A stretch of DNA of 64,000 bases from Ophioderma brevispina. Lineage: Eukaryota > Echinodermata > Ophiuroidea > Amphilepidida > Ophiodermatidae. The stretch covers positions 86,341-150,340 of the forward strand of contig JAMKCH010012490.1 in the NCBI GenBank assembly GCA_023653785.1, read 5' to 3'. Positions 4,609 through 37,290 of the stretch are shown in pieces (within the stretch, counting starts at the first letter, position 1; every line of letters begins with the position of its first letter). The notes under the pieces were generated by a model, which saw only the letters and a list, made by a program, of their open reading frames with translations, had not been told where the DNA came from and made no database searches. The translations under genes and the position numbers were made by a program.

Positions 4609-5046
4609 CGGAAAATTCTTGAAATTGTGTCGGCAAATGGACAGTTTTGTCGCCAATATTTTAGACTGGCAGCCCAGAAGGTTTTGATCAAACGAACGAG
4701 ATACCAATATCTGAATGCGGGAAAATTCAGAGAAAAATATAACATTTTCAAATATGAATGTCTGCCGGAGACCCGCTGCTGCGTGTGGCCCCAGGAGAGG
4801 GGTAAAGTTACTATGGGGGTCAAATGTTTGAACTGCTCTAAATCTAATGAAATATAGCTCAAATTATTCCTTAGGTTACCAGGAGTAAAAAGTCAATTGG
4901 GGCACATGCGTGTAGTGCCTCCTTTCCAAGATATTTGGGAAATAGGCTAAAATGTCATTTATTTATTCAAGGAAGGTAACTTTTTGCAATACCCAGATTT
5001 CTTTGTAAAAATATATCAAAAGAAATATTTAATGATACTGATTTTT
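4609..5046 (+). repeat. Interspersed repeat, copy 1 (inverted relative to 18.3 kb)
   Basis: This segment is found in reverse orientation at 18,285-18,520 and, beyond an inserted element, at 19,341-19,395. Shared blocks include CTTGAAATTG..GTCGGCAAATGGACA, GATCAAACGAACGAGATACC, ACCCGCTGCTGCGTGTG and TTAATGATACTGATTT. It has short open stretches on both strands but no recognisable protein, and it behaves as a non-coding mobile repeat. Confidence 0.7.
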
Positions 5047-5049
5047 TTT

Positions 5050-5310
5050 TATTTTGCATAGGGGTGGTTCCCTTTAATAGGGAGGGATATAATGTCCCCA
5101 TCCCCATAGAGTCCTACAGGGAATTTTGTACCCGGCCCCTCCCATTATAACAACAAGAAGATGCCGAAAGTGCTAAATCATTTCATATTTTTAAGGGGGG
5201 GGGGGGTTATTCCTCCCGCTCCCAAATGTTAATTTTTTTTTTCCACCAGCAAAAAGTGAGATTTTTTAACACCCTGCGGAAAAGTCTTAGCTTTGAAATA
5301 CTTTTTACTT
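5050..5310. other. Low-complexity spacer with G-run
   Basis: This contains a run of ten or more G near 5,195, poly-T stretches and ordinary AT-rich sequence. It separates the 4.6-kb repeat from the first LINE copy. No gene is seen. Confidence 0.5.
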
Positions 5311-7395
5311 GTATTGACTAAAATCCGACTCTCGCTTCCGAAGATATACTGATCAAAGTATCGGAAGTGACAAAAAAACTTGGCGAAAAGCATTTGTCAT
5401 CTACCAATCAGGTCATTGTCATTTTGGCCGCGGGTCGGCAACAAGTTAATTTTTTCTTAGCTTGTGATGAATTTCGACAATTGATCAGACCCGCTAATTT
5501 CTTGGCTCTTTGGTCACAGTTTTAAAAGTCCCTACCGAGGTTTATGAATACATCCCTGACAAATTTAACAAAGTCCTTGAATACATAACAATCTCTCATT
5601 AACATGACTACAACTGAGATCTCTGTTGATACTTTTCTTCCATCCCTTCCGTTTCCACCTCACTGTCAATGATATGTTCCAACCCATCTTACGCAGATCT
5701 TGATTCGTTGGCTACCGTTTTCCCTGAAAAATGGCGCGGCTTCCGCACCCCACCAATCCCTGGCCTCCTTCATATGCCAATGGTTCCATCAAAGAATTTC
5801 CGAGCTGTATCTGAAAGTCACACTCTGCTGCCCAGAATTTCATTCGTTGAAGGGTATGATGTAGTTTTAATCATGGCATAGCTCCCGTCTTGAGAGGGAA
5901 AGGAAATGGGTTTCAAAAACATCTTTTGTTCTCAAGTCCGCAAGAATCTTCTTATAGTCCATGCAAAATGCTACCTCCTTAAAGAACTCAAAATCGGCCA
6001 AAAATATAGGAAGATGCTAACTCTAGCTTTTGGCACCTCACGTAAAACCTCTGCTGGTTCCGGGTAGATGTGTTTTATAGATTTATATGCACTGAAGCCA
6101 ATCCACTTTTGGAAAAGCATCGTTTATAACCTTCCGGTCGGGTTTGCAAATTTGTTATCATGCCTTATGTGATACACTCACAATAAGGTCAACGTAAAGC
6201 GTTGGGGGAAAGCTAATCAACGAGCAAGTGCTAAACTGTGTAAGAACAGGGCTACCCTTCACCACATTTTGAATCATTGGCTTTGCCCCATTTGCTCGCT
6301 CGATCAGGGCCGGTACACTGGCGCCATACTAACTTCTTCACTATATATGGAAACACGGATACCGGTTCCAATCGACCAAAATCACAAATATTCTGCGATC
6401 TTAAACTTTAGCAAAGGGGACAAGCTTCAACATCTCCATTGGTCGTACGTCACATCTCTTTCCCCATCTGTGTTTGGTTTCTGGGAGTCTGCACGGAGGA
6501 GGGCATTCATTGAAACTTACCGTACGGTGCCCTTGAACTTAATTTTGACCAGCCCACAATAGAAAAATCTGACAAATATGCACCGCTTGTCCGCTGATAT
6601 TCAAATAATCATTTTGAGTGTGATCTCATTGCTCTAGAAATTGGTAGTGGGGTACATGTCTCCCAAAAACCTTGATAGGCTTAAATGTATCCCCTCAAGG
6701 TAATAAATCCCACACCTTTCAAAATAATTCGGGATGATATCAGTAAATTATCAATTTATCATACCTTCTCTATTTTCCACGCCCACTAGGAACCTACCTG
6801 GGACGTTTAACCCCACTTCTTATTGTGCATAATTGCTCTTTTGGGCGGTCCCTTAGGGTTATCCCTTTTATCTATTTGTGTTTCTTTGGTCAGTATTGTT
6901 TTGGTCACCTGTTTTTATATTTTCCCTGCATGTCAGATCCACTAACATGGAGAATTGTTTCTGGTTTACATGTCTTCCTTTAGTGTGTATTTTAATCTTT
7001 GGTACAATGCTTAATAAAAGTGATATGAATTACCATTATTATTAGTTTTTCAACCAGTGATAAGTAACAATATTTTTCAAAAATAAATATAGGCCGTGGG
7101 TTGTGTTTCTTTTCAAGTTTTGTATGGAATTATTAAAATAAAATGACAAAGATTAAATATGCTCACTTGTAACATACTGCGATACATTTCTATGTATTTC
7201 TTTATCTTTATTTCCTCACCCTGCTAGATTTAACAAAATGATATTAAAAATTAATAACAAGTAATTAATGCATATTTTTCAAATCAAACCTTTGATTAAA
7301 AATTAGATACTTACTACTCTAACATGACAAAATGCAAAACAATTAACAGTAATTCAGTATAAATAGCGCCCTCAACGTAGCACAATATCTCAATA
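5311..7395 (+). mobile_element. LINE 3'-half relic, copy A
   Basis: About 2.1 kb that recurs in direct orientation at 15,688-17,795. The plus strand encodes the distal part of a non-LTR retrotransposon ORF2. Near 6,230-6,290 it reads LCKNRATLHHILNHWLC, the cysteine/histidine zinc-binding segment that follows RT in several LINE families. Near 6,613-6,648 it reads FECDLIALEIGS, from the conserved C-terminal tail. Upstream (about 5,600-6,100) are further coding-like pieces broken by frameshifts. The 3' untranslated part has an AATAAA signal at about 7,012. The catalytic RT core is not recognisable, so this is a 5'-truncated, dead copy. The exact clade was not assigned. The 3' boundary (CTCAACGTAGCACAATATCT) is set by the end of identity with copy B. 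Confidence 0.75.
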
Positions 7396-8237
7396 ACCCC
7401 CATTTGCTTCTTTCCGCTACCTACGCTTTTTTTTTCCAACAATTTTTCCCAGAAAAACATCCACTTTTTAAACAGTTTAAACATCCAAATTCAAATTTCA
7501 CCCGCTACACGCACATTTTGAACAATTTGTATATTTCAATTTCATGGCAATTAACTGTGGAAGAAAACTCTGGAAGAGAAGAGACGCACTTCTATTTGAA
7601 CTGCAGTTTTGTTAACCTCAATGGCCCTCTCTTAAAGTACAACTGAATGACCCCATTCTAATTCAGGCTATGTACATATTTTACCTGAATGGCCCCCTAC
7701 TTTTTACCTGATGGCCGAGACACATAACCTTCACTTCAGATAGGCTGGGCCCGGACTTTTCCGAATGAGATCATACCTTAAATTTTCATAGCAAATCAAA
7801 ACTCGTTTTGTTACACGGTAAAAGAGCGTGTAACTAAAATGCTGCCCTCACTTGAAAGACACATTGGAGTCAAGTACTTATTTGACTTGTCAATTAGAAC
7901 TTTCGTTTTCTGAAAAGAATTAGTAGTGCTACTATATCGTACTGATGCTTATCATTGTTACAAATTTGTTACCATCCATGTGTAAAGGATTAAGTTGCAA
8001 TAATATTCACCCACATTGGGCTTTACTCACTAGCTCTGAAATCAGTCGTTACCCCTTTAATCATTTAAGCATAGAGTTTCCATACATGTTCAATAAAAAT
8101 CAAACAAATTTAATCCTGACCTTTAATGTACATTGAAATGTTCTTGAAGATTTGCATACTTTCTCATAATTAAAAAAGTGTTGTTTATCATAAAATCGGG
8201 TAGTGTCACTTAAAACAAGAATTTCACCTTTTCACTG
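7396..8237. other. Unassigned DNA between LINE copy A and the LTR
   Basis: No gene or repeat is supported. Homology to copy B stops abruptly at about 7,395, and the LTR of the gypsy element begins at 8,238. Confidence 0.4.
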
Positions 8238-9296
8238 TGTATGACGTCTCGTGGACGCCCAGTCACGAAATAACTTTCAAACACAAATAAATGATCTTTG
8301 TGTCAGAACAAATGCTCTGAATTTTATATAATAAACATTTTAATAATGATCTTACTTGTTTTGGTTCAAGAATTTGGTAAGGTCCAACACAAATTACATA
8401 TAATTACACATTCTATTATTATTTATACAGATGGTCTAGTATCCTATTTTGAAGGCGTTGCAGTTCACCGAGATATTCCCCACAGCGAAGACGCCAAATG
8501 ACAGGATGCAACGTTCACATTTTTTAAACTCTTCAGGTAGTATATTTCTTGGGAGATCTTCCATTCCGGAAATAACTTTTGTCCAGCAGTTCAATACGTC
8601 AAGGTTAAATTAAGTCCCTCGACGACATTAATATACCACAGTATATCAGTCCAAGATAAATCACCACGATTTCTAATCTGTCCACAATTTGGAATCTTTA
8701 TTTTGATTCCCAGCACTTTTGGCTTCAAGACGACCGTAGAATAATTCCAGCACTCTGCTCACATGGAAGTGTTATATAATCAATGCCGGGCAAGCCCAAG
8801 AGTACTGTCCTTCACTTCATTGGCAGATTAAATAGCTATCTTCTGCTACTTGTTAGAAGAATGGATGCTGGCAGAATAGTCCTTCCAGTGATAGTATTTA
8901 CTACTCACAGATAGATTCCCCTTTCCTAACAATAATCTTACATCATCTCATGCATAAACATAACCTTACACTACTGACCCAAGCGGATTTCATCACCCGA
9001 ATTACATTACTTCACATATAGATCTCTTGGGGAATTTCCCAGATCTTGCAATGTTTTGATCTTGAAAGCATAAACAAGTTTTACCCAGTTTCTAAGTTTA
9101 GCATCCTTGGGAATCCCACTTCCTCCTCCCTATTGTGCCATCTAAACAGGGTGCCTTAGCAAAACAAACTAGGGGTATTCCCCTTCTCTCTTTAATAGTA
9201 AAACAAAAAAACTTTTCCCCGTGCGAAATCTCGCCTGCCTCAATAAATTGAGAAAATAATATTTTAAAAGTTTACTCAAAACATGAGGCCATAACA
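8238..9296 (-). repeat. 3' LTR of the gypsy element
   Basis: A direct repeat of 14,587-15,547. Shared anchors are CTCGTGGACGCC near the left end, GAATTTTATATAATAAACAT, ATTTTGAAGGCGTTGCAGTT, ATCATCTCATGCATAAAC and the closing GAGGCCATAACA. On the plus strand it starts TGTATGACG and ends ATAACA. It is about 100 bp longer than its partner and differs by many one- or two-base indels. Confidence 0.85.
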
Positions 9297-9309
9297 TCCG
9301 CCCCCTTAG
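9297..9309 (-). other. Polypurine tract
   Basis: On the minus strand this reads TAAGGGGGCGGA immediately upstream of the 3' LTR. That is the expected position and composition for the plus-strand primer of an LTR retrotransposon. Confidence 0.7.
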
Positions 9310-9499
9310 AAAGAAAATGAATGCAATTAAAATTTTTCCAATCTGGCTTTATACCTTTTAACCATTTGTGGTTCAATTTTACATCAGTTTACACATTGCA
9401 AATTTTTACCTTTTTTATTATAAGGTTCCTTGCATTGCTGCCTTCATGTCTATATTCATAACTTTGTAATACTAAATTTTCTGAACAAAATTTTAGGCA

Positions 9500-9880
9500 G
9501 CTCTGATACAAGCATCTGCCAAGACATTACCTTTTCCTTGATATTCTTATGTCCAGATTGTATTTCTTGTAGATTAAACTCCACCTGACAATCTCTGATT
9601 TCTGTTTTTCATCTTGTGGATGAAGTCACCGATTGTGATCCGTTACACTAGAACGGGTGTACTGTTGTTATCTCAGTACACTTCAAAATTTTTGCAATGA
9701 CAGTAGCCATGCAGACATTCTTTTCTCACTTGTTGTGAGTAGTTTTTCTGATGTTTTCAAACGTCTTGTGAGAAATACCATCCAAGGAATCTGATCTAAA
9801 GCATTTTCATCTGCTTGCATGAAACTCCACCACAACTACATCCACTGGCCTCACCTGCCACTTGATGTGCTGAAAGTCTG
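9500..9880 (-). pseudogene. Gypsy RNase H remnant
   Basis: Minus-strand reading about 9,640-9,500 gives HKMKNRNQRL, then YQGKGNVLADA. This is the end of a gypsy RNase H domain (family form: ..KNQRLxRW..., GKxNxxADALSR). It follows RT and precedes the purine tract by about 200 bp, so RNase H is the last pol domain, as in Gmr1-like order. Stops and indels interrupt it. Confidence 0.7.
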
Positions 9881-9899
9881 GCGCAATCAAACGTGCGCA

Positions 9900-10640
9900 G
9901 TCATCAAAATAGATGATTTTCTTCAACGACGTTTTTGGCATTGCTCTGACCAGAACAAATTTTGCATTTTTCTTCAGAAGGTTGGTCAGGAGCCGACACG
10001 CAATTTTTGAAGAAATTGGACAGCATTTTCCTGTAATACCCGACCATACCTAATAATCTCATGAGATTCTTTTGCTTTGTGGTTTGGGAATTTCTCAATT
10101 GCTTCAACTTTTTCTGTGATTGGCCTAATTTGCCCTGTCCTACAATAGCCCCTAAGTATGTGACATTTGCATGGCAAAATTCACTTTTTCCCAATCACAG
10201 TTTAAACCTGCCTGAATAATTTCTCAAACAATTGATGGAGCTGTCTCATGTGTTCTTCCCATGTTTTCACTGTAACACAAGGAGATCATCGACATAGTCT
10301 TCACAATTTTCTATGTCTTGCAACTCCTCTGCACACCTCTGAAATGTTGCCGGCAGAATTTTTGAGACCAATGTCCATTCTTTTGTCTTGGTATAGGCCA
10401 ATCGGGCGTACAAAAGGCGAAATTTCTTTGGCACGTTCAGTGAGGGGAATTTGCCAATACCCCTTCAACAAATCAAAATTTGCTAACAAACTTGGCATTT
10501 CCAACTCTATCTATGCAATCATCAATTCGTGGATCGGATATTAGTCGGTTTTGAACAAGGTTGACTTTCGAAAATCTGTGACAAAAGAAATGAACCATCA
10601 GGTTTTGGTCACCAGAATACATTGGGACTCCATTCACTAT
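9900..10640 (-). pseudogene. Gypsy reverse transcriptase, broken
   Basis: In element order the minus strand gives RIDDCIDRVGNAKFVSKF, immediately followed by DLLKGYWQIPLTERAKEI near 10,480-10,430 (RT motif with the first catalytic aspartate region). Then comes FCHANVTYLGAIVGQG near 10,180 and FLGMVGYYRK-like sequence near 10,070 (RT thumb/connection). The central YxDD region (about 10,300-10,250) is frameshifted, with only 'DDL' still visible. At least three frameshifts separate the readable blocks. These are unmistakably Ty3/gypsy-type RT motifs. It lies downstream of integrase in element orientation. Confidence 0.85.
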
Positions 10641-11059
10641 TGCTTTGCTCTAAGATTCCAATTTCTAACATGTATTTTCACCTCATTCCTTGAATGTTGC
10701 AACTTGATTTGGATTCACCCATATAACGGATGTTGCTTACAGGCTCGGAAGTCCCCTACACTACTGTGCATGGGTTTGACATGTGGTTTCACTGGGGCAC
10801 ATCAGGAAATATGTTTTCCCCTCAGAATTAACTAACCTTTCAATTTACCTTGTTGTCTTTCTGGGAGGTGACCTATTTTCTGTGTCTACAGTGCAGTATG
10901 TCATAAGTGTTGCATTTGACACCATAACATTTTCTGTGTTTACAGTGCTGTTTGTTCAGTTTTGTGCACTCTGGTGTGTCAATATTATTTGCACACTCAA
11001 TCACTACTCTGACGACATCACACCGCAGGCTTAATAGTATATCACCTCTTTCATTATCC

Positions 11060-12070
11060 CTTGAGATATTTATTTGACATAATGTCGACTGTTAACGTCT
11101 CTGGTGTTTTGATCACATAGTCAGGGTCTCCCACTTGTTCTCATCTCATATGGTCCAGAATACCAGGCTTGCAACGGATGCCTTGATTGGAAAAAGGTTG
11201 CCAAAACTCTGTCAACCTGGCCTGAATACTCTATTCCTGGCATCTTGTCATACCATGTTTTCGCAGGGATTTTGCCTGACTCTGGTTTAGATTTTGTGTG
11301 GCAATTTCAGTGGCTCTTTGTAGCCCTTGTGTCTGAATGAGACACATAGTCCACAATTCAGCATAAGAATTTTCACACAACCACTTTTCTTCATAGTTTA
11401 ATGGTCCCTAACTTTGTGAATCAAAACCCCCCCACCCCCCAACACCAACTCAAATGGCTAAATCCTAATTACTCTTGTACACCTCCTGGTAGCAAATAAC
11501 AGGAGACTAACTCCCATCATCCCAATCCCTCTCAAATCAAAACAATAGGTTTTGATCATTGTCTTCAATATTTGGTGGTACCTTCTAGGGCCCCCCCGGA
11601 TTCTGGGTGGTATTCTGAATAACTGTACTGGGAATTCCCAACTGGTCCCCTACTGTTGGAACAACCCTGATATGAAATTTGATCCTTGATCAGACGAATT
11701 GATTTTGGAAGGCCAGCTAGGGTGAAAAACTTTGTTAGATCTCGCTATATTCGTTCCCTACTATTTCCCAAGGTTATATAGCCCAGGAAATCTTTGGAAG
11801 GCACACATGGATGGTCAGTAAATACGATTTTCCGACTTGTCTTGTGGAAGTGGTCCTATCGCAATCTATAAACACCCTACTAAATGGCTCATCAATGCTG
11901 GTATTGGGTTGCAAGGGAGCATTAGGAATTTTCTGATTGGCTTGCCAACCATTTGACATGTGTTACAAGTCTTACATACTCAGACAAACATCTTTTCTGG
12001 TGGTAGCCACCAAAAGGACTCCTAATTCTGTCATGTTTTTTTCTCACACCTAAGTGTCCTGCCAGGGGAC
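11060..12070 (-). pseudogene. Gypsy integrase, broken; lies upstream of RT
   Basis: In element order: a zinc-binding HHCC remnant (GHLGV..., then VCKTC..CQM near 12,020-11,945), a linker KIPNAPLQPNTSIDEPFSR, and a catalytic core start VFIDCDRT with the first aspartate near 11,860 and SYLLTIHVC after it. A C-terminal piece near 11,130-11,080 reads GDPDYVIKTPE, as in the end of gypsy integrases. The second and third catalytic acidic residues cannot be placed because of indels. Its position between gag/protease and RT, not after RNase H, is the feature that marks the Gmr1-like order. Confidence 0.8.
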
Positions 12071-12629
12071 TATCGTGGGCTTATGCCTATCACTTCCCTA
12101 GGTATACCTTTGGCACTAAAATTTGATGCACAACCTTCCATTCCTCATCTTACAAGTGCATCGGGTGGCCACCATTTTGCTCTTGAGACACCATGTGTTT
12201 GTAGAAACAACGAATTTGCTCCGGCTTCCTGTTTGCGACAATGCCCTCTCACCAATTTCCTAAGTGCTGGGTCGTTGTGCTGCTTATTTACCAGCTTGTC
12301 ATGGCTTAAAGGGTCTCCTTTACAGTCCCTAATCTATCAGCTCAGGCGGCTGTATTTCACACATTGGTTACCAGCTTGTCACTTTGTTTGGCTCAGGGGC
12401 TGGATTTTCACTAACATGGAATTTAGTCTCCGCCTGAAGAGGGAATATGACCGTCACTTCCTCCAATTTTGAGAGGAAAGTATCCTCTAAATTGGGACCA
12501 AGTCATCCTCAACACTCTAACTATATGTGTGAGTATTTGGACTCATCACCTGCTCACTTTTTTCTGTGAGCTTTTCTGGTCATTGACCTAGTTACTGCAC
12601 ATGCTGGGAAATGTCCCGCTATTTCCTCA

Positions 12630-12810
12630 ATCAAATATACCACTGTCAGGCACCTGGCAAAACGATGGGATCTGGATTACTTGCCCCCTTCCCATTATTC
12701 CCACACATGGATACCCCTTTAACCTGGGAGTTCTTGTCTAACAAAAGCACCAATGTACAGTTCCCGAAACCAAGGTCTGATTTGCAAATTCATTTGGTGA
12801 AGAGGGACAC
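12630..12810 (-). pseudogene. Gypsy protease C-terminal remnant
   Basis: Minus-strand pieces near 12,780-12,650 resemble the region after the DTGA active site of gypsy proteases, with an LVSG-like piece and a valine-rich 'LP..GV' then 'N..AG' block split over two frames. The active-site DTG itself was not found. The call depends on its position between the zinc-knuckle remnant and integrase. Confidence 0.4.
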
Positions 12811-13099
12811 TAATACAATACCTATCCCCTGAATCTATGCACTAGTTCCTGTGAACTCTCAATATCAAATGGAAGTGCATCTTCCAATATCATGGAACGG
12901 CGCGCAGCACGTGTCCCCATGAGTCTAACCCTGAACGTGACCAAAGCCCGCCAAACCAAAAGGCTTAAAGTCATCCCTACTTTTTCTCTGTGTCAATTCC
13001 CTTTTGTGGGATTCTTGTTTTTGAACAGAAAATTAACTTTTGACCTCACAGTATCTGCACAACCTATTGGTTTGGACTCACCTTTGGGCTTCCTCCATT

Positions 13100-13200
13100 T
13101 GGGTGGATAGCTGTATCTCTCCCAACACCGTGACCCTTGTTAATGCCGGCTTCCTACCGTGATTGCATGGTAACTGTGATTTGGGTCCCATCCCCATGTT
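13100..13200 (-). pseudogene. Gag zinc-knuckle remnant
   Basis: On the minus strand a CNH.GRKP segment near 13,175 is followed in another frame by CWERYSYPPKWRKPKGE near 13,130-13,080. This matches the CCHC knuckle and following proline/tryptophan-rich segment of gypsy gag proteins. A frameshift splits it. Confidence 0.5.
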
Positions 13201-13329
13201 TCTGTTTGCCCATTAACTGTCTTTACTCCCCTTTTCATGGACCTGACTGGGATTTTGCCCCTCCTGAGTGCTAACCATGAGACGCTTTGTTTAAACCCGA
13301 CTTATTGTTGTATTGTTGTACTAGTAAAT

Positions 13330-14275
13330 TCTGGCTAGGCCTACTAGTAATACTTAATTTTGTGTGTCACTGCCTAATCGTCGGCCTTTACGGCTGCTCA
13401 CGCAAACTGTCAATTGTGTTTTCATCCAGTGTGTTTTTGATATCTGGATGTAACTCCATGTTTTGAACTCTTCAACTAACAATCACTCCCTAAGTTGACC
13501 AAATTTTGCCCGACTTCTTTGAGCGAAGCCCGCGATCAAACATTTGTTCCTCCTCCCGGGGCAAATTCACATGGGTCTGGTCCATCCTTTTTCTGACCAA
13601 GACCTTATTTTTTGTCTATATGCCTCTGGCACCAATTCCTATGCTTTTGAGCCAAACTTTGCCTGCTTACCTCGTCATAATCACTACATCGGTCTAATGA
13701 CTGGCCGATATATTCTCGGGCTTTACCATGAACCTGACTGTACCACAAAGGTCCAAGACTCCTGGCCATTTCAAGCTATTGGCATTTTTTTAAAAGTGAA
13801 TAGTATTTGTCCTTACTTCTTGTTCTGAAATTTTGGAACCAGGCAAATAATTTCTTTCGCCGCATCAAAACCAGACGGGCTGGAAGAGGTCTGATGACTA
13901 GCCTGTTTTTTCAATTTTTCCTAACTCTAACTGAGCTTCAATCTCTTGTTTGTTTCATCTCATTCTCATTTTTCCCTTTTTCCAATTCTTTTTTCCTTCT
14001 CAATTTGCATTCTATCTCTTTTTGTCTCATTTCATTTGGCATTTTTTATTTCCCAATTTCCTTTTCCTTGTGCATCTCAATTTTTCTTTTTGCTAATTCA
14101 TTTCCTTTTTCTTTTTGGTTTTCCATCTCTATCTTTTTCAACTCTATTTCCAATTCCTTTGATTCAAGTTCTTTTAACTTGAAAGCATCACTTTTTTCTT
14201 GTTTCCAGAATTTCTTTCTATCCTATCCCAAATATGAACTATCCCAAACAGCTTCCTGACAACTTTTTCAATCAA
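13330..14275 (-). pseudogene. Gypsy gag: coiled coil plus capsid-like region, broken
   Basis: From about 14,275 to 13,915 the minus strand encodes a Lys/Glu/Met/Gln-rich helix (visible on the plus strand as a long T/C-rich tract). It is followed at about 13,873-13,830 by FDAAKEIICLVPKFQNK and then capsid-like pieces WTFVVQS, CEFAPGGG and LKEVGQNLVNLG down to about 13,480. A final block runs near 13,430-13,340. This layout (charged coiled coil, then a retrotransposon gag fold) is typical of metazoan gypsy elements. Several stops and frameshifts are visible. Confidence 0.75.
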
Positions 14276-14565
14276 TTATTCTTGATGACTTGCTTCTCAT
14301 AGCATTTTGCCTCAATCCTAAATGCTTGGCTAGTTCAATTACCCGGCTTTCGGCTAAGCCATCAAACTTCTCCCAGTTATTTGCTCATGCACACTTCTGA
14401 TCAAACTCCATTGTATTGTACTCTACAACACATATCTACTTGAACCAAACTACTAATTAGTACATGTAATACACCAAAATTTTGTATGCCAAACATGTGC
14501 ACAATGTTACATATGCCCACTTTAATGCGTAAATTTTGAACAATAAGGCTCAAAGTTTATCTCAA

Positions 14566-14586
14566 TTCCCGGACGAGCCCCAATTC
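14566..14586 (-). other. Primer-binding site (tRNA-Pro-like)
   Basis: On the minus strand, five bases after the LTR end (..AACA), the sequence reads TTGGGGCTCGTCCGGGAA. The 3' end of eukaryotic tRNA-Pro is complementary to TGGGGGCTCGTCCGGGAT. The match is near-complete apart from the first and last bases. Confidence 0.7.
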
Positions 14587-15547
14587 TGTTATGACGTACC
14601 TCGTGGACGCCTAAGTTCAGAAATACCCTTCAAACACAATGGAGCCTTGTGCACAATGACTGAATTTTATATAATAAACATTAATGATCTTACTTGATTT
14701 GGTTCAAGAATTTGGTATGTCCAAAACAAAATTACATTATAATTTACACAATTCAGAATTTATTATACTTTAAAGAGTTCTAGATCCTATTTTGAAGGCG
14801 TTGCAGTTCAACGATGATAATGTCCTCCCAGCGAAGACTCTCCAAACTGACAAGGATGCAAAGTTGACATATTTAACTCTTCAGGTAGTATATTTCTTGG
14901 GAATCTTCTCAGTGCTGAAGATAACTTTTGTCCAAGCAGTTCAAGGAATTTTGATTCCAGCACTTTTGGCTTCAAAGGACGACAGTAGAATACTTACAGC
15001 ACTCTGCTCACATGGAATTGTAAATATAATAAAATCGGGACACCAAGTACAGGTCTGCTTCTCATTGCAGATTAAAACTAGCTATTAACTTCTAGCTACT
15101 TGGTAGAAGTGGATGCTGGCAGAGAGTCATTCCAGTGATAGTATTTAACTACTCACAGATAGATCCCCTTTCTAACAATAGATCTACATCATCTCATGCA
15201 TAAACCTAACCTTACACTAGCTGACCAATCAGAATTCATCACCCGAATTATACAATCCTTCATAATATAACTCTATGGGGATTTCCCAGATCTTGGGCAA
15301 TGTTTTTTGATCTTTTAAAGCATAACCAAGTTGACCCAGTTTCTAAGTTAGCATCCTTGGGGAATTCCCCCACTTCCCCTATTGGGCAATCTAAAGCAGG
15401 TGCACTTAGCAAACAACTAGGGGTATTCCCCTTTCTCTCTTTTATAGTAAACAAAATACTTTTCTCCCACGGAGAAATCTCTTCTCAAATAAAATTGAGA
15501 AAATAAATATTTTTCAAGTTTATCAGAAAAATGAAGGCCATATAACA
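14587..15547 (-). repeat. 5' LTR of the gypsy element
   Basis: The partner of 8,238-9,296. The plus strand starts TGTTATGACGTACCTCG and ends GGCCATATAACA, giving TG...CA termini in either orientation. It would contain the element promoter, but no TATA box can be assigned with confidence. Confidence 0.85.
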
Positions 15548-15687
15548 CCACCAACTTATCAATTTTGCATGCAGCATATTTGAACTCAGCCCCCTCGAAT
15601 GCCTAAAACAACTCTCAGGTCTTTTAGTGTATCTTGAGTAGGGTGCAACCTTATTTTGAGCCTTTTAAGGCTTGATGGATCCCCTAG

Positions 15688-17795
15688 TATTGACTAAAAT
15701 CCGACTCTCGGTTCCGAAGATATACGATCGAAGTATCGGAGGCGACAAAAACACTTGGCGAAAAGCATTTTTTCATATACCAAATGCAGGTCTTGTCCAT
15801 TTGTTGCCGCGGGTCGGCAAACAAAGTTCATTTTTCTCTTTAAGCTGGTGATTAATTTTCGACAATTGATCAGACCCGCATAATTTTCTTGGCTCTTGGT
15901 CCATTTAAAAAGTAACCTACCGAGTTTATGAATACATCCATGCAAATTACAAAGGCCTTGAATACATTAACAAATCGCCATTAGAAATGAATACAAACTG
16001 AAGTCTATTTTGATTACTTTCTTCGCATCCCTCCGTGTCCACCTCACTGTCCAATGATATGTGCGCAACCCATCTTACCGTCTTGTTCGTTGGCTACGCG
16101 TTTTTCTGATTTCCTGAAAAAAATGTGAGCGGGCTTCCGCACCCCGCAACCCTGGCCTTCCTTCATATGCCCAATGGTTTGGCCATCAAAAGAATTTCCG
16201 ATTGTATCGTGAAAGTCCACATCTGCCCATATTTCTCTCGTTTGAAGGGTTATGAGTAGTTTAATCATTGCATATACTCCTTCCCCGTCTTGAGAGGAAA
16301 GGAAATTGGTTTCAAACACCTCTTTTGTTCTCAAGTCCGAGAATCTTTCTTAAGTCCATGCAAAATGCTCACCACCAAACGCTTAAAGAATGTCAAAACT
16401 CGCCAAAAATATTATGAAAGATGCTAACTCCTATCTTTTTTACCTGAGAAATGGCACACTCAGGTAAAAACCTCTGGCGGGTTCAGTGTAGATTTTTAGA
16501 TTTATTATGCACCGAAGCCAAATCCTACTTTTGGAAAAGCAATCGTTTATAACCTGCCGGTCGGGTTTTTGCAAATTTTGTTATCAATTCCTTATGTGAT
16601 ACACTCAACAATAAGGTCTACTTAAAACGTTGGGGTAAAGCTATCAACGACACGTTAAACGTGTAAGAACAGGGCTACCCTCACCAATTTTGATATTGCT
16701 CATTTCTCTTCAATCAGGGCAGGTACCATGCGCCTAATAACATTCTTCACTAATGATGTAAAACGATTATGACCGGTTTCCAATCGACAAGATCCACAAA
16801 ATTCTGCGATCTTAAAACTTTAGCAAGGGGAAACAGCTTCATCACCCTCCAATTGGTCCTGTAACAGTCACTCCTTATCCCGATCTTGTGTGTTCTGGGA
16901 GTCTGCACGGAGAATGGTCATATTGAACTTACGGTGCCTTTGAACTTAATGTTGAACAAGCCCACACTAGAAAATCTGACAAATATGCAGCGCTTGTCGC
17001 TGATATTTCAAAATAATCATTTTGAGTGTGATCTCATTGCTCTAGAAATTGGTAGCCGGGTAATTTTTCTCCCCAAAACCTTGATAGGCTGAAATGTATC
17101 CTCAATTTGGTGTAATCCTCCCCCAACCGTTTCAAAAAATCTCGGAGGAATGAATCAAGTAATTATCAATTTTCATCCTTCTCATTTTCCCGCCCACAGG
17201 AACCTACCTGGGAACTATACCGGCACTTCTTATTGTGCATAATTGCTATTTTTGGCTGGTCCCTTAGGTGTTATCCCTTTAATCTTTTTTTGTCTTTGGT
17301 CGTAGTTTGTTTTGGTCGCCTGTTTTATATTTCCCTGCATTCATCCACTAAAATGGAGAATTGTTCTGGTTTTTACATGTCTTCCCTTTATTGTGTATTT
17401 TATATTGGTACATGCTTAATAAAGTGATATGGAATATGCATGTTATTTATGAGTTTCAACCAGTGATAATTAACAATATTTTTCAAAAAATAAATATAGG
17501 CCGTGGGTTGTGTTTCTTTTTCAAGTTTGTATTGGATTATTAAATATAAAATGACAAAGATTAAATATAGCTCACTTTTAACATACTGCGATACATTTCT
17601 TATGTTTCTTTTAAATACTAATAATGCGTTTTGAAACCTTTAAAATTATTTAAAAATTAATAACAAAGTAATTAATGCATCTTTTTCAGTCAAACTTTGA
17701 TTAGAAATTATGATAATGACTACTCTACATGTGAAAAATGCAAAACAATTACATAATTCGTACAAATAGCGCCCTCAACGTAGCACAATATCTCA
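15688..17795 (+). mobile_element. LINE 3'-half relic, copy B
   Basis: A direct copy of 5,311-7,395, beginning GTATTGACTAAAATCCGACT and ending CTCAACGTAGCACAATATCT. The plus strand retains ELTVPLNLMLNKPTLENL-like sequence near 16,925-16,980 and FECDLIALEIGSRVIF near 17,023-17,070, the conserved C-terminal tail of this LINE family. An AATAAAG signal is at about 17,418. It differs from copy A by numerous short indels across its whole length, including the non-coding 3' part. The catalytic RT core is absent. Confidence 0.75.
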
Positions 17796-18284: not shown

Positions 18285-18527
18285 AATCAGTATCATTAAA
18301 TATTTATAAAGGAAAGGAATAATTTGAGCTATATTACTTTAGATTTAGAGCAGTTCAAACATTTGACGCCCATAGTAACTTTACCCCTCTCCTGGGGTCA
18401 CACGCAGCAGCGGGTCTCCGGCAGACATTCATATTTGCAAAAGTTATAATCCTCTGAATTTTCCTGTGAGATATTGGTATCTCGTTCGTTTGATCAAAAC
18501 CTTCGGGCTGCTGCTCTATTTCTTACC
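18285..18527 (-). repeat. Interspersed repeat, copy 2, split by an insertion
   Basis: The reverse complement of 4,660-5,046: AATCAGTATCATTAAATATT, TTTAGAGCAGTTCAAACATT and GCAGCAGCGGGTCTCCGGCA are shared. Homology stops at about 18,527 where the TIR element begins, and resumes at about 19,341 with GCAAATCTGTCCATTTGCCG through about 19,395. Confidence 0.7.
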
Positions 18528-27045: not shown

Positions 27046-28795
27046 CGTGCGTGCAAGTCCAAAATCACAGTGGAAGATCCGTCTTTAACCAGCTGATAGT
27101 TTCATCATCCAGGTTGATCAGGCCTGGAATTCCTCTTGGGGACTTGTAGACCTCACAGTCATCTATGATGTTGCTAATGGTTTGTGGCTCTCCACAATCG
27201 CAGTTTGGTGAAAGTTCTACTCCGATCTTGGGAAAGAAGTTTTTTGTACGACCAACGCCAGTTCTGAGTCTTTTGAGGTTGACCCATGCTTTCCTATCAA
27301 GGTCACAGCCTTTGGGCTTGCTAGATGGGCTGTCCACAAACTGCTTTAGGTTCAAAGTAGAGGATGACCATTGCTCATACCATCTGTCATGGATCCAGGA
27401 TGATCGATAGGGATGCTGTGAATGCAGTGTCATGGATTGGGTAGCAAAGTGATTCCGTGGAATTCTCTGATCCTCAAAGGGTGTTGGTGGGGGGATTAGG
27501 CTACCAGGTTCATCACATTTCTTGGCGAGCTTGATCGTCTGAAGGTTCCTCCTATGCCAGACAGAATTGGAAGATATTCTACAGGCGTCGCCAAAACGCA
27601 ACCACTAACAAGTCTCATTGCATCATTCAGAACGACATCAATCTTGTGTGAATGTACACTGTGACTCCATACTGGTGCAGCGTATTCAGCAGTGGAGTAT
27701 GCCAAGGCAACAGTTGATGTATGTAAGGTGTCAAAAGATGCACCCCATCCAGTTCCTGCGAGCCTTCTGAGGAGGTTGACACGAGACTGCGTCTTGGCAG
27801 CGACTGCCTTGGTGTGTTGATTGAAAGTAAGGCTGCGATCCATTGTGACGCCAAAGTACTTCGGTGTTGGGTCATGTGACAGTTTTTCTCCATCTAGAGT
27901 GATGTTAAGTTCTCTTTTTGTGCATCGATTTGCAAGGTGGAAAACAGAGCTGACGGTCTTGGGTTTGCTGAGTTTCAAGTGCCATCGGTGGAAGAATTGG
28001 CTTACAGTGATTAGGTCTTTCTGCAACACTGTTTCTAAGGACTCAAAGGAATCAGCAGCTATTCCAAGTGCCATGTCGTCTGCGTAGGAGTACTGCGAAC
28101 AATCTTCCTTTGGCATATCTGAGACGTAGATGTTGAAGAGACTGGGTGCCAGGACAGAACCTTGTGGGACACCATTCCGAAGTTTGCGCTTTCTACTGCG
28201 TTGCCCATTTAATGTCTCCAGGACGAAAGATCTGACTTGGATGAGCAGCATAATGAACTTGACAAGCTTGACATCAGGGAAGATTTTGAGTAGCTTGAGG
28301 TAGAGACCTCGATGCCAGACTGTATCGTACGCAGCAGTTAGGTCTATGAAGACTGCTCCAAACTTCTGCGTCTTCTGGAAGGCTGTCTCGATGTCATTAA
28401 CTAGTCTTGCTATCTGATCAGTTGTTGATTTACCTCTTCGAAATCCAGCTTGGGTGCGGGGTAAATTTGCCTCGACCGTATCATTGATCCTGCCGAGTAT
28501 CAGTCGCTCAAGCAGCTTATAGATGTGAGATAGTAGCGAGATGGGTCCGTAACTATTGGGCTCATTTGCTGGTTTCTTGGGCTTCAGGATTGCAATGACC
28601 TTTGAAGTCTTCCATCTGGAGGGAATAGTTGACGTTCCCATGCAAGTAGAAAGGAAGAGTTGGAGCCATCGCACAGCTTCGGGTGCCATATTCTTCAAGA
28701 ATTCTGTATGGATGTTGACATTGTCAGGAGCTTTCCCATTCTTGAGAACTTTAATTCCTTCGGTGATCTCATCGTAGGTAATAACTTCTCCCTAC
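27046..28795 (-). mobile_element. LINE RT, 5'-truncated, only one clear frameshift
   Basis: The minus strand is open from about 28,793 to 27,496, then in a shifted frame to 27,065. Residues of the first block (from 28,698): IARLVNDIETAFQKTQKFGA and VFIDLTAAYDTVWHRGLYLK (finger/palm, first Asp region, about 28,400-28,310), GVPQGSVLAPSLFNIYVSDM (about 28,170-28,110), YSYADDMALGI (YADD catalytic box, about 28,090-28,058), WHLKLSKPKTVSSVFHL (about 27,985) and YSTAEYAAPVW (about 27,700). The shifted block holds RTGVGRTKNFFPKIGVELSP and CDCGEPQTISNIIDDC, a zinc segment, ending LKTDLPL. The frameshift is near 27,553. The 5' end (endonuclease, N-terminal RT) is missing. Its 3' end, GACTTGCACGCACGAACGAA, recurs at 38.88 kb. 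Relatively young compared with its neighbours. Confidence 0.85.
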
Positions 28796-35339: not shown

Positions 35340-37290
35340 AATCTTCATCCAAGTCAAAGGAAAACTTTTTTGAAATGTTTACCCAATTTGTCATTTTTTT
35401 CAGCAATCTTATACTCTATCTTAAATTTTAATCTGAACATTTTGAGGAAGGCCGTGAAATTGGGATTAGTTTGTTGAAATTTGCATCTATAGATGTAAAA
35501 TTTCAAATACAAAATAAGGTAATTGACACGTGTACTATGAAGAGATGAGGTTTTATCCACACCAAACATTTTCTCAAATTTAGAAAAATTGAACTGATCA
35601 CCAGTTTTTCTGCACAAATAATTGCAAAGACTCTCCCACAGAGGAGAGACATTGTCACATTCACAGAAAATGTGAACAAGAGATTCAGGCACCCTGCTAC
35701 AAAATGAGCAATTTGGAGACTCAATTGTGCAGAAACTTATTTGTACAAATTGCTCTATGAAATATTTTAACATAGAAGGACCTCATTTGGGTTTCAATAG
35801 TACTACAGAAATTATTACAGTGAACAGAGGTCCAATCTGTGTCCCCATCAACATCTAAAATATCCTGCCAATAATTTTCAGTATCAGCAGGGATGTCCTG
35901 AACCTTAAGAATATTATAAGCATGTTTGGGAACTTTAGCTGCTTGAAGCAGATCAGTGACAACTTTATCCAAAATATTATCCACATTTTTCTTGAGGTTA
36001 TAAAACCAATCCAATGAAATGGCATTCATAAGAGAATTATACTTGCGTCTATCCTTCAGGGGGATATCGTATTCAATAACTAAGTCTTCAAATGTTTTTA
36101 CAAAGTTGTATCCCCTATCAAGATCTGACAGATAAGCAATACCCTTATCCAGCCACTCTGGGTAAAAAAAGAAACGTTTAGTCTTGAGGTGGACATTTTG
36201 GTTCCACCAAATAGGGTCTTGAAGAAAATAGTCACCATGACCTAAATTTTCCTTGATCTTATTACTATAAAAGTACCAAGTCCTTAAGGTCTCAGCCAAC
36301 TGAGTGTTTTTTAACTGATTGAGAACACAGTTGGGGGCATTTGTTTTCCATAACACTGATGTATCACTATAAAAATTGGAAAGAAGATTAAATTCAATAC
36401 TTTTCCATGTATTAACATAGTTAGGGTCAAGCAAATGTCTAGCCCAAACCATCTTTGTGCCTGAGAAAAGGCCACAAGATCTACCATGCGGAGACCAGCA
36501 TTTGAATAATCATTACATAGGAATTTACGTTTCACCCTGTCATTCCCACCATTCCAGATGAATTTATAAAATAAAGTATCAAGTTTCTTAAAGTAATATT
36601 TTGGAATCGGTGCACACAAGACAGAAAATAAATAAAGCAACTGAGGCAACAAAAGAGTCTTAATAACAGTGACTTTACTAATTAATGACAAATTCCTACA
36701 GCGCCAACAATTGAGGATTTGCTGAATCTGATTAAGTTTTGGAATATAATTGAGCTCAAAAAGGGATTTAGTGTTAAGGGAGAATTGAATACCAAGACTC
36801 TTAAACGTATTGTTTTTCCACACTAAACCATTGGCTTCAAAGGACCTAAAATGACTTCCCTTGAGACTCCCAATATGAATAGCTTCATATTTAGACATAT
36901 TCACCTTGCAACAAGAGACCTTGGCAAAATTGTCCAAGATGTTAAAAAGACTCTGAAAGGATTCTTCATCACCTTGCAAAAAGCATGTAGTATCATCAGC
37001 TAAAAGACTAACTTTCTTTTCCACATCACCAATTTTAATCCCTTTCACATGTTGATCATTCCTATTAATAATAGCCAAAACCTCAATCACACAAACAAAT
37101 AAAAGTGGCAAAAATGGGCACCCTTGAAATATCCCGCGTTTCATAGGAATAGGATCTGAAAGAAAGCCATTATTAATAATATAGCTGTTCCTGTTACAAT
37201 AAAATGTCTTAACCCACTGAATAAAATTGTCCCAAAAATTAAAAGATTTAAGAACATCAATTTCCTCTTAAACACAATAAGGCAGGGGTA
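35340..37290 (-). mobile_element. L1/Tx1-type LINE RT, C-terminal half, 5'-truncated
   Basis: On the minus strand the coding sense runs from about 37,265. KSFNFWDNFIQWVKTFY-like sequence is followed by MKRGIFQGCPFLPLLFVCVI (about 37,144-37,085; RT motif with QGCP) and KVSLLADDTTCFLQ (about 37,020-36,980; the xADD catalytic box). Next are SKYEAIHIGS and FKSLGIQFSLN. The frame then shifts near 36,450 to MVWARHLLDPNYVNTWKSIE and onward to about 35,730. A second shift near 35,760 leads to NCSFCSRVPESLVHIFCEC (about 35,715-35,660), a CxxC...H..C zinc segment characteristic of Tx1/L1-clade ends, and a Lys/Phe-rich tail to 35,354. The endonuclease and first half of RT are missing. Two frameshifts disable it. 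Confidence 0.85.

What the first reader, a model, noticed from the sequence alone, without database searches (positions are those of the whole stretch)
9297..14586. Ty3/gypsy element with integrase upstream of reverse transcriptase (Gmr1-like order)
In element orientation, integrase blocks (12.06-11.06 kb) come before RT (10.6-9.9 kb) and RNase H (9.7-9.5 kb), yet the sequence motifs are gypsy-type. Ordinary gypsy elements place integrase last. This Ty1/copia-like order is known for the Gmr1 group described from deuterostomes, and the sequence shows it directly despite many frameshifts.
Basis: partly seen in the sequence, partly recalled or inferred. Interest (0 to 1): 0.75.

Follow-up and report, generated by a model that had tools for sequence, protein, structure and literature searches.

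The report
Gmr1-type retrotransposon in a brittle star
This is a decayed copy of a known kind of jumping gene whose inserting enzyme is encoded before its copying enzyme, a swapped order long known in marine animals; the one odd detail is that many copies in this brittle star carry an unusual protease active site.

Summary
9297-14586 is the interior of a minus-strand LTR element (LTRs 14587-15547 and 8236-9296). Integrase pieces precede reverse transcriptase and RNase H in the window and in 14 of 14 fetched sister copies. In sister L013 one naturally open 563-codon frame carries the integrase C-terminus and then RT, so nesting or misassembly does not explain the order. Thirteen of 13 scanned homologs agree. 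Gag is SCAN-like in relatives and weakly so here, a second Gmr1 mark. By COX1 the host is a brittle star. It is an ordinary member of the known Gmr1 group, though no tree with named Gmr1 elements could be built.

Additions: (1) The window copy has an excess of short indels (41.5/kb against 64 substitutions/kb, ratio 0.65; 0.12-0.19 in the five cleanest sisters), so part of its frameshifts may be assembly error. (2) The protease site reads D-T-C in 13 of 17 readable copies, and 84 exact D-T-C sites face 11 D-T-G sites genome-wide; 60 of 61 long relatives have D-T/S-G. (3) The element lies between 2.1-kb direct repeats.

The parts
14587..15547 (-). 5' LTR (TGTTATAT...CATAACA)
   Evidence: pairs with 3' LTR at 80-82% identity; ends read from sequence
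14565..14582 (-). primer binding site, TGGGGCTCGTCCGGGAAT, like the complement of a tRNA-Pro 3' end (tRNA assignment recalled, not tested)
   Evidence: sequence; sister L021 reads TGGGGGCTCGTCCGGGAATT
13397..13831 (-). Gag capsid, SCAN-like region
   Evidence: tblastn of homolog P0122, E 6e-5; SCAN PF02023 E 2.4e-4 in a piece of sister L021
12906..12914 (-). protease active-site codons D-T-C (in place of D-T-G)
12012..12149 (-). integrase zinc-binding H2C2
   Evidence: tblastn E 9e-12
11572..11910 (-). integrase core (rve)
   Evidence: tblastn E 2e-8
10118..10627 (-). reverse transcriptase
   Evidence: tblastn E 7e-24; RVT_1 E 5e-3 on a piece
9589..9777 (-). RNase H
   Evidence: tblastn E 3e-10
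9297..9307 (-). polypurine tract AAGGGGGCGGA
   Evidence: next to 3' LTR; similar in several sisters
8236..9296 (-). 3' LTR

Best explanation
A degenerate copy of a Gmr1-type Ty3/gypsy LTR retrotransposon. In relatives one frame encodes Gag (SCAN-like capsid), protease, integrase, reverse transcriptase and RNase H, in that order (shown in homologs). Inferred life cycle: the RNA is packaged in Gag particles, reverse transcription is primed at a tRNA-Pro-like site and at the polypurine tract, and the cDNA is inserted by the integrase. The swapped order only changes where each enzyme lies in the polyprotein. This copy is broken as assembled.
For: Order in the window and 14 of 14 sister copies. 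One naturally open frame with Integrase_p58_C 168-201 and RVT_1 343-500 (L013). Against the Ty3 polyprotein the same frame matches in permuted order: residues 277-553 fit Ty3 570-849, and residues 65-213 fit Ty3 1301-1454, the latter weakly (16.7 bits). INT before RT in 13 of 13 homologs scanned, of 211 held. SCAN over the cut-off in 4 of 4 scanned long homologs, weakly in own copies. LTRs, PBS, PPT. Host COX1 nearest to brittle stars. RT groups with elements of the brittle star Amphiura filiformis, support 98/97.
Against: No named Gmr1 element could be put in the tree. No convincing target-site duplication in the window (read by eye). SCAN in own copies is below Pfam's cut-off. Six of 10 window pieces gave no Pfam hit. 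tRNA-Pro is recalled, not tested against host tRNAs. No INT-last gypsy of the same genome was available as a control.
Confidence: 0.95

Rival explanations
1. Ordinary gypsy element whose order was scrambled by nesting or misassembly, so that integrase only seems to precede RT.
For: The window stretch has many indels and flanking direct repeats.
Against: Same order in 14 of 14 other copies, one open frame across the junction in L013, and 13 of 13 scanned homologs.
Confidence: 0.01
2. A Ty1/copia element, in which integrase before RT is normal.
For: Domain order only.
Against: Best PDB match is the Ty3 polyprotein, E 2e-64; none of the 29 matches listed is named as a Ty1/copia element. Integrase H2C2, p58_C and SH3_Tf2-1 and RT_RNaseH in sister copies; SCAN-like Gag.
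Confidence: 0.01
3. A separate INT-first gypsy lineage that arose independently of Gmr1.
For: No labelled Gmr1 sequence could be compared.
Against: SCAN resembles the Gag capsid of Gmr1-like elements (PMC4592553, passage); passages of PMC6238403 and PMC8220671 name Gmr1 as the gypsy clade with this order.
Confidence: 0.04

Closest known systems
Gmr1 clade of Ty3/gypsy (Goodwin and Poulter 2002; only its entry in a reference list was seen)
   Same: Integrase upstream of RT, gypsy-type domains, SCAN-like Gag, no room for an envelope gene after RNase H, deuterostome host
   Different: LTRs about 1 kb, against 337-518 bp in pufferfish Gmr elements (PMC11117352, table passage); protease motif D-T-C in 13 of 17 readable copies
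INT-first elements of Amphiura filiformis (P0061, P0206)
   Same: RT 70-77% identical and same supported group; P0061 has integrase before RT
   Different: No protease motif was found in P0206 and P0061 begins within integrase, so their motif is unknown; P0206's order was not scanned
Ty3 of yeast (PDB 7q5b)
   Same: RT and, weakly, integrase C-terminus alignable
   Different: Integrase follows RT in Ty3
Ty1/copia elements
   Same: Integrase before RT (recalled, and stated in passages of PMC6238403)
   Different: Sequence is gypsy-type

Membership tests
LTR retrotransposon | Paired LTRs, primer binding site, polypurine tract | tested here: met
   LTR pair 80-82%; PBS and PPT in window and several sisters
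LTR retrotransposon | Target-site duplication | tested here: inconclusive
   No clear 4-6 bp duplication seen next to 15547 and 8236 (by eye)
Ty3/gypsy | Gypsy-type RT and integrase | tested here: met
   Ty3 polyprotein best PDB match, E 2e-64; Pfam H2C2, rve, p58_C, RT_RNaseH in sister copies
Gmr1 clade | Integrase upstream of RT | tested here: met
   15 of 15 copies including the window; L013 frame
Gmr1 clade | SCAN-like Gag capsid | tested here: inconclusive
   Over the cut-off in 4 of 4 scanned long homologs; in own copies 2 of 10 Gag/protease pieces match, E 2.4e-4 and 0.095, below the 27-bit cut-off
Gmr1 clade | RT or integrase groups with named Gmr1 elements | not tested
   No protein listed is named Gmr1; the tree holds INT-first homologs and Ty3 only
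Retropepsin (clan AA) protease | D-T/S-G active site | tested here: not met
   Window and 12 of the other 16 readable copies read D-T-C, none has the glycine codon in frame; 11 sites genome-wide read D-T-G

The most novel reading that the evidence does not exclude
In this brittle star the larger part of a Gmr1 family carries a protease whose catalytic glycine codon became cysteine by one G-to-T change (GGC to TGC), yet it spread. It would then be a protease-defective lineage matured in trans by a minor D-T-G lineage or another element, or else a retropepsin that works with D-T-C.
Probability: 0.3. Interest if true: 0.45.

Novelty: new member of a known kind. Interest (0 to 1): 0.2.

Why it matters
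It places an abundant INT-first gypsy family in a brittle star, fitting a known group. The protease change, if it belonged to active copies, would allow a test of whether an LTR element can spread on another element's protease. It also shows how indel-rich assembly of repeats can make an element look more decayed than it is.

Tried and rejected
Nesting, misassembly and copia membership were considered and rejected. A second integrase downstream of RNase H: no room. Target-site duplication: none seen. Never answered: a control with INT-last gypsy elements of the same genome; a histone search meant as a host-gene control for indels (not repeated); the copy number of the flanking 2.1-kb repeat; the count of D-T-C sites under the same degenerate pattern as for D-T-G. 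The comparison 84 to 11 therefore uses the 84 zero-mismatch rows listed, and all 11 rows have the same flanking letters. Print on D-T-C: PMC2642776 has no occurrence of 'DTC' in its main text, and the titles listed show nothing on it; this does not show that it is unpublished. Papers were seen as search listings or passages only; none was read whole.

Full report
What was checked. The window lies in a 2.51-Gb genome of 65,844 contigs. Its mitochondrial COX1, an open frame of 530 codons (read with code 9 for the search), is nearest to brittle stars among named hits of the best 120 listed: 90% to Amphiura sp., 88-89% to Ophiurina, Stegophiura and Gorgonocephalus, 82-85% to further ones (Ophiomusa, Ophiacantha, Aspidophiura, Ophiophthalmus; placed among brittle stars from recall), against 73-77% for other named echinoderms. 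Amphiura, Gorgonocephalus and Stegophiura are Ophiuroidea, within Deuterostomia. The species was not determined.

Anatomy. On the minus strand the element runs from 15547 to 8236. The LTR pair is 80-82% identical, with 10% mismatches and 72 gap openings per kb. A tRNA-Pro-like primer binding site (recalled assignment) follows the 5' LTR, and a polypurine tract precedes the 3' LTR.

Order of domains. tblastn of separate domain pieces gives H2C2, integrase core, RT and RNase H in that order in the window, E from 2e-8 to 7e-24. All 15 copies examined (the window and L009-L022) have at least one integrase piece, RT and RNase H in this order; 8 of the 15 lack one or two of the three integrase pieces. 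The sisters were taken from 39 other places with 88-90% RT identity to the window, so they are the nearest relatives, not a random sample. In L013 a frame of 563 codons, open as it stands in the genome, holds Integrase_p58_C at 168-201 and RVT_1 at 343-500. Compared with the Ty3 polyprotein this frame is permuted: RT residues 277-553 match Ty3 570-849 (204 bits), integrase residues 65-213 match Ty3 1301-1454 weakly (16.7 bits).

Relatives. A protein search gave 3091 homologs, of which the best 120 were listed; named ones include Solemya, Biomphalaria, Amphiura, Ptychodera, Apostichopus and Pinctada. A second search gave long gag-pol proteins. Of 211 proteins held, 13 were scanned with Pfam, and all 13 have integrase before RT. 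The four long ones scanned read SCAN, H2C2, rve, p58_C, RVT_1, RNase H. In own copies SCAN matches 2 of 10 Gag/protease pieces, E 2.4e-4 and 0.095, below the curated cut-off. PMC4592553 states that the SCAN domain resembles the C-terminal part of the Gag capsid of Gmr1-like elements (passage). In an RT tree of 27 rows the four own copies included group with both Amphiura filiformis rows and five unnamed rows, support 98/97; 13 of 24 inner branches are weak, and Ty3 is a very long branch. No labelled Gmr1 element is in it.

Known kind. Passages of PMC6238403 and PMC8220671 describe Gmr1 as the gypsy clade with integrase upstream of RT. It is reported outside deuterostomes in crustaceans (PMC3587641) and an annelid (PMC8220671), and in frogs and fishes (PMC4131045, PMC11117352). 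The finding is a new member of that group.

Frameshifts. Least-squares rates from 105 copy pairs give the window 64.1 substitutions and 41.5 short indels per kb, ratio 0.65; the 14 sisters range from 0.12 (L012) to 0.54 (L009), five of them at 0.12-0.19. One-base gaps dominate. So high a ratio is unusual for decay (recalled), so part of the frameshifts are probably uncorrected assembly errors (inference). Against a contig-wide error rate: 431-codon and 318-codon frames with RVT_1 elsewhere in the window are open. The host-gene control did not complete.

Protease. Of 38 sequences searched, 19 aligned over the active site and 17 are readable there: 13 read D-T-C (the window among them), L018 D-T-Y, L021 D-M-C, L022 D-I-C, and L046 is unclear because of an extra base; none has the glycine codon in frame. 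Genome-wide, 504 sites match the D-T-C pattern with up to 2 mismatches, which includes D-T-G and other variants; the reversed-pattern control gives 0. Of the 100 places listed, 84 are exact D-T-C. The D-T-G pattern gives 11 exact sites. Of the 61 held relatives of at least 1250 residues, 60 have D-T/S-G and one D-T-A; many of these are close to each other, so they are not 61 independent cases. Around the site 8 loci (7 D-T-C, 1 D-T-G) have frames open for 10 to 132 codons; the D-T-G one has 35. L052 and L054 give the same 103-codon frame, so some sites may be allelic or doubled in the assembly. PMC6058741 says of ERV-K proteases that this glycine must be small (passage). I read this as a lineage that lost the glycine and still spread, perhaps using protease supplied in trans; this is inference.

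Surroundings. The element lies between direct repeats 5308-7392 and 15684-17795 (81%; 87.5 mismatches and 77 gap openings per kb), outside which lies an inverted pair 4669-4872 / 18314-18511 (92%). The flanks had no match in the loci fetched by then, L001-L050. Their nature is open.

Verdict. Observation confirmed, interpretation supported, ordinary member of a known group; the protease change is the one detail worth a follow-up.

Noticed in passing
window 12906-12914 (-), and sites genome-wide: Protease active site reads D-T-C instead of D-T-G in 13 of 17 readable copies; 84 exact D-T-C sites listed against 11 D-T-G sites.
   Followed up: partly
window 5308-7392 and 15684-17795: 2.1-kb direct repeats, 81% identical and indel-rich, flank the element on both sides.
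   Followed up: partly
window 4669-4872 and 18314-18511: 204-bp inverted repeats, 92% identical, outside the direct repeats; may be a common short repeat.
   Followed up: no
window 27499-28791 (-) and 36314-37267 (-): Long open frames with RVT_1 (E 6.5e-33 and 1.4e-10), apparently non-LTR elements.
   Followed up: no
window 9297-14586: Indel excess relative to sister copies (0.65 indels per substitution), suggesting local assembly error.
   Followed up: partly
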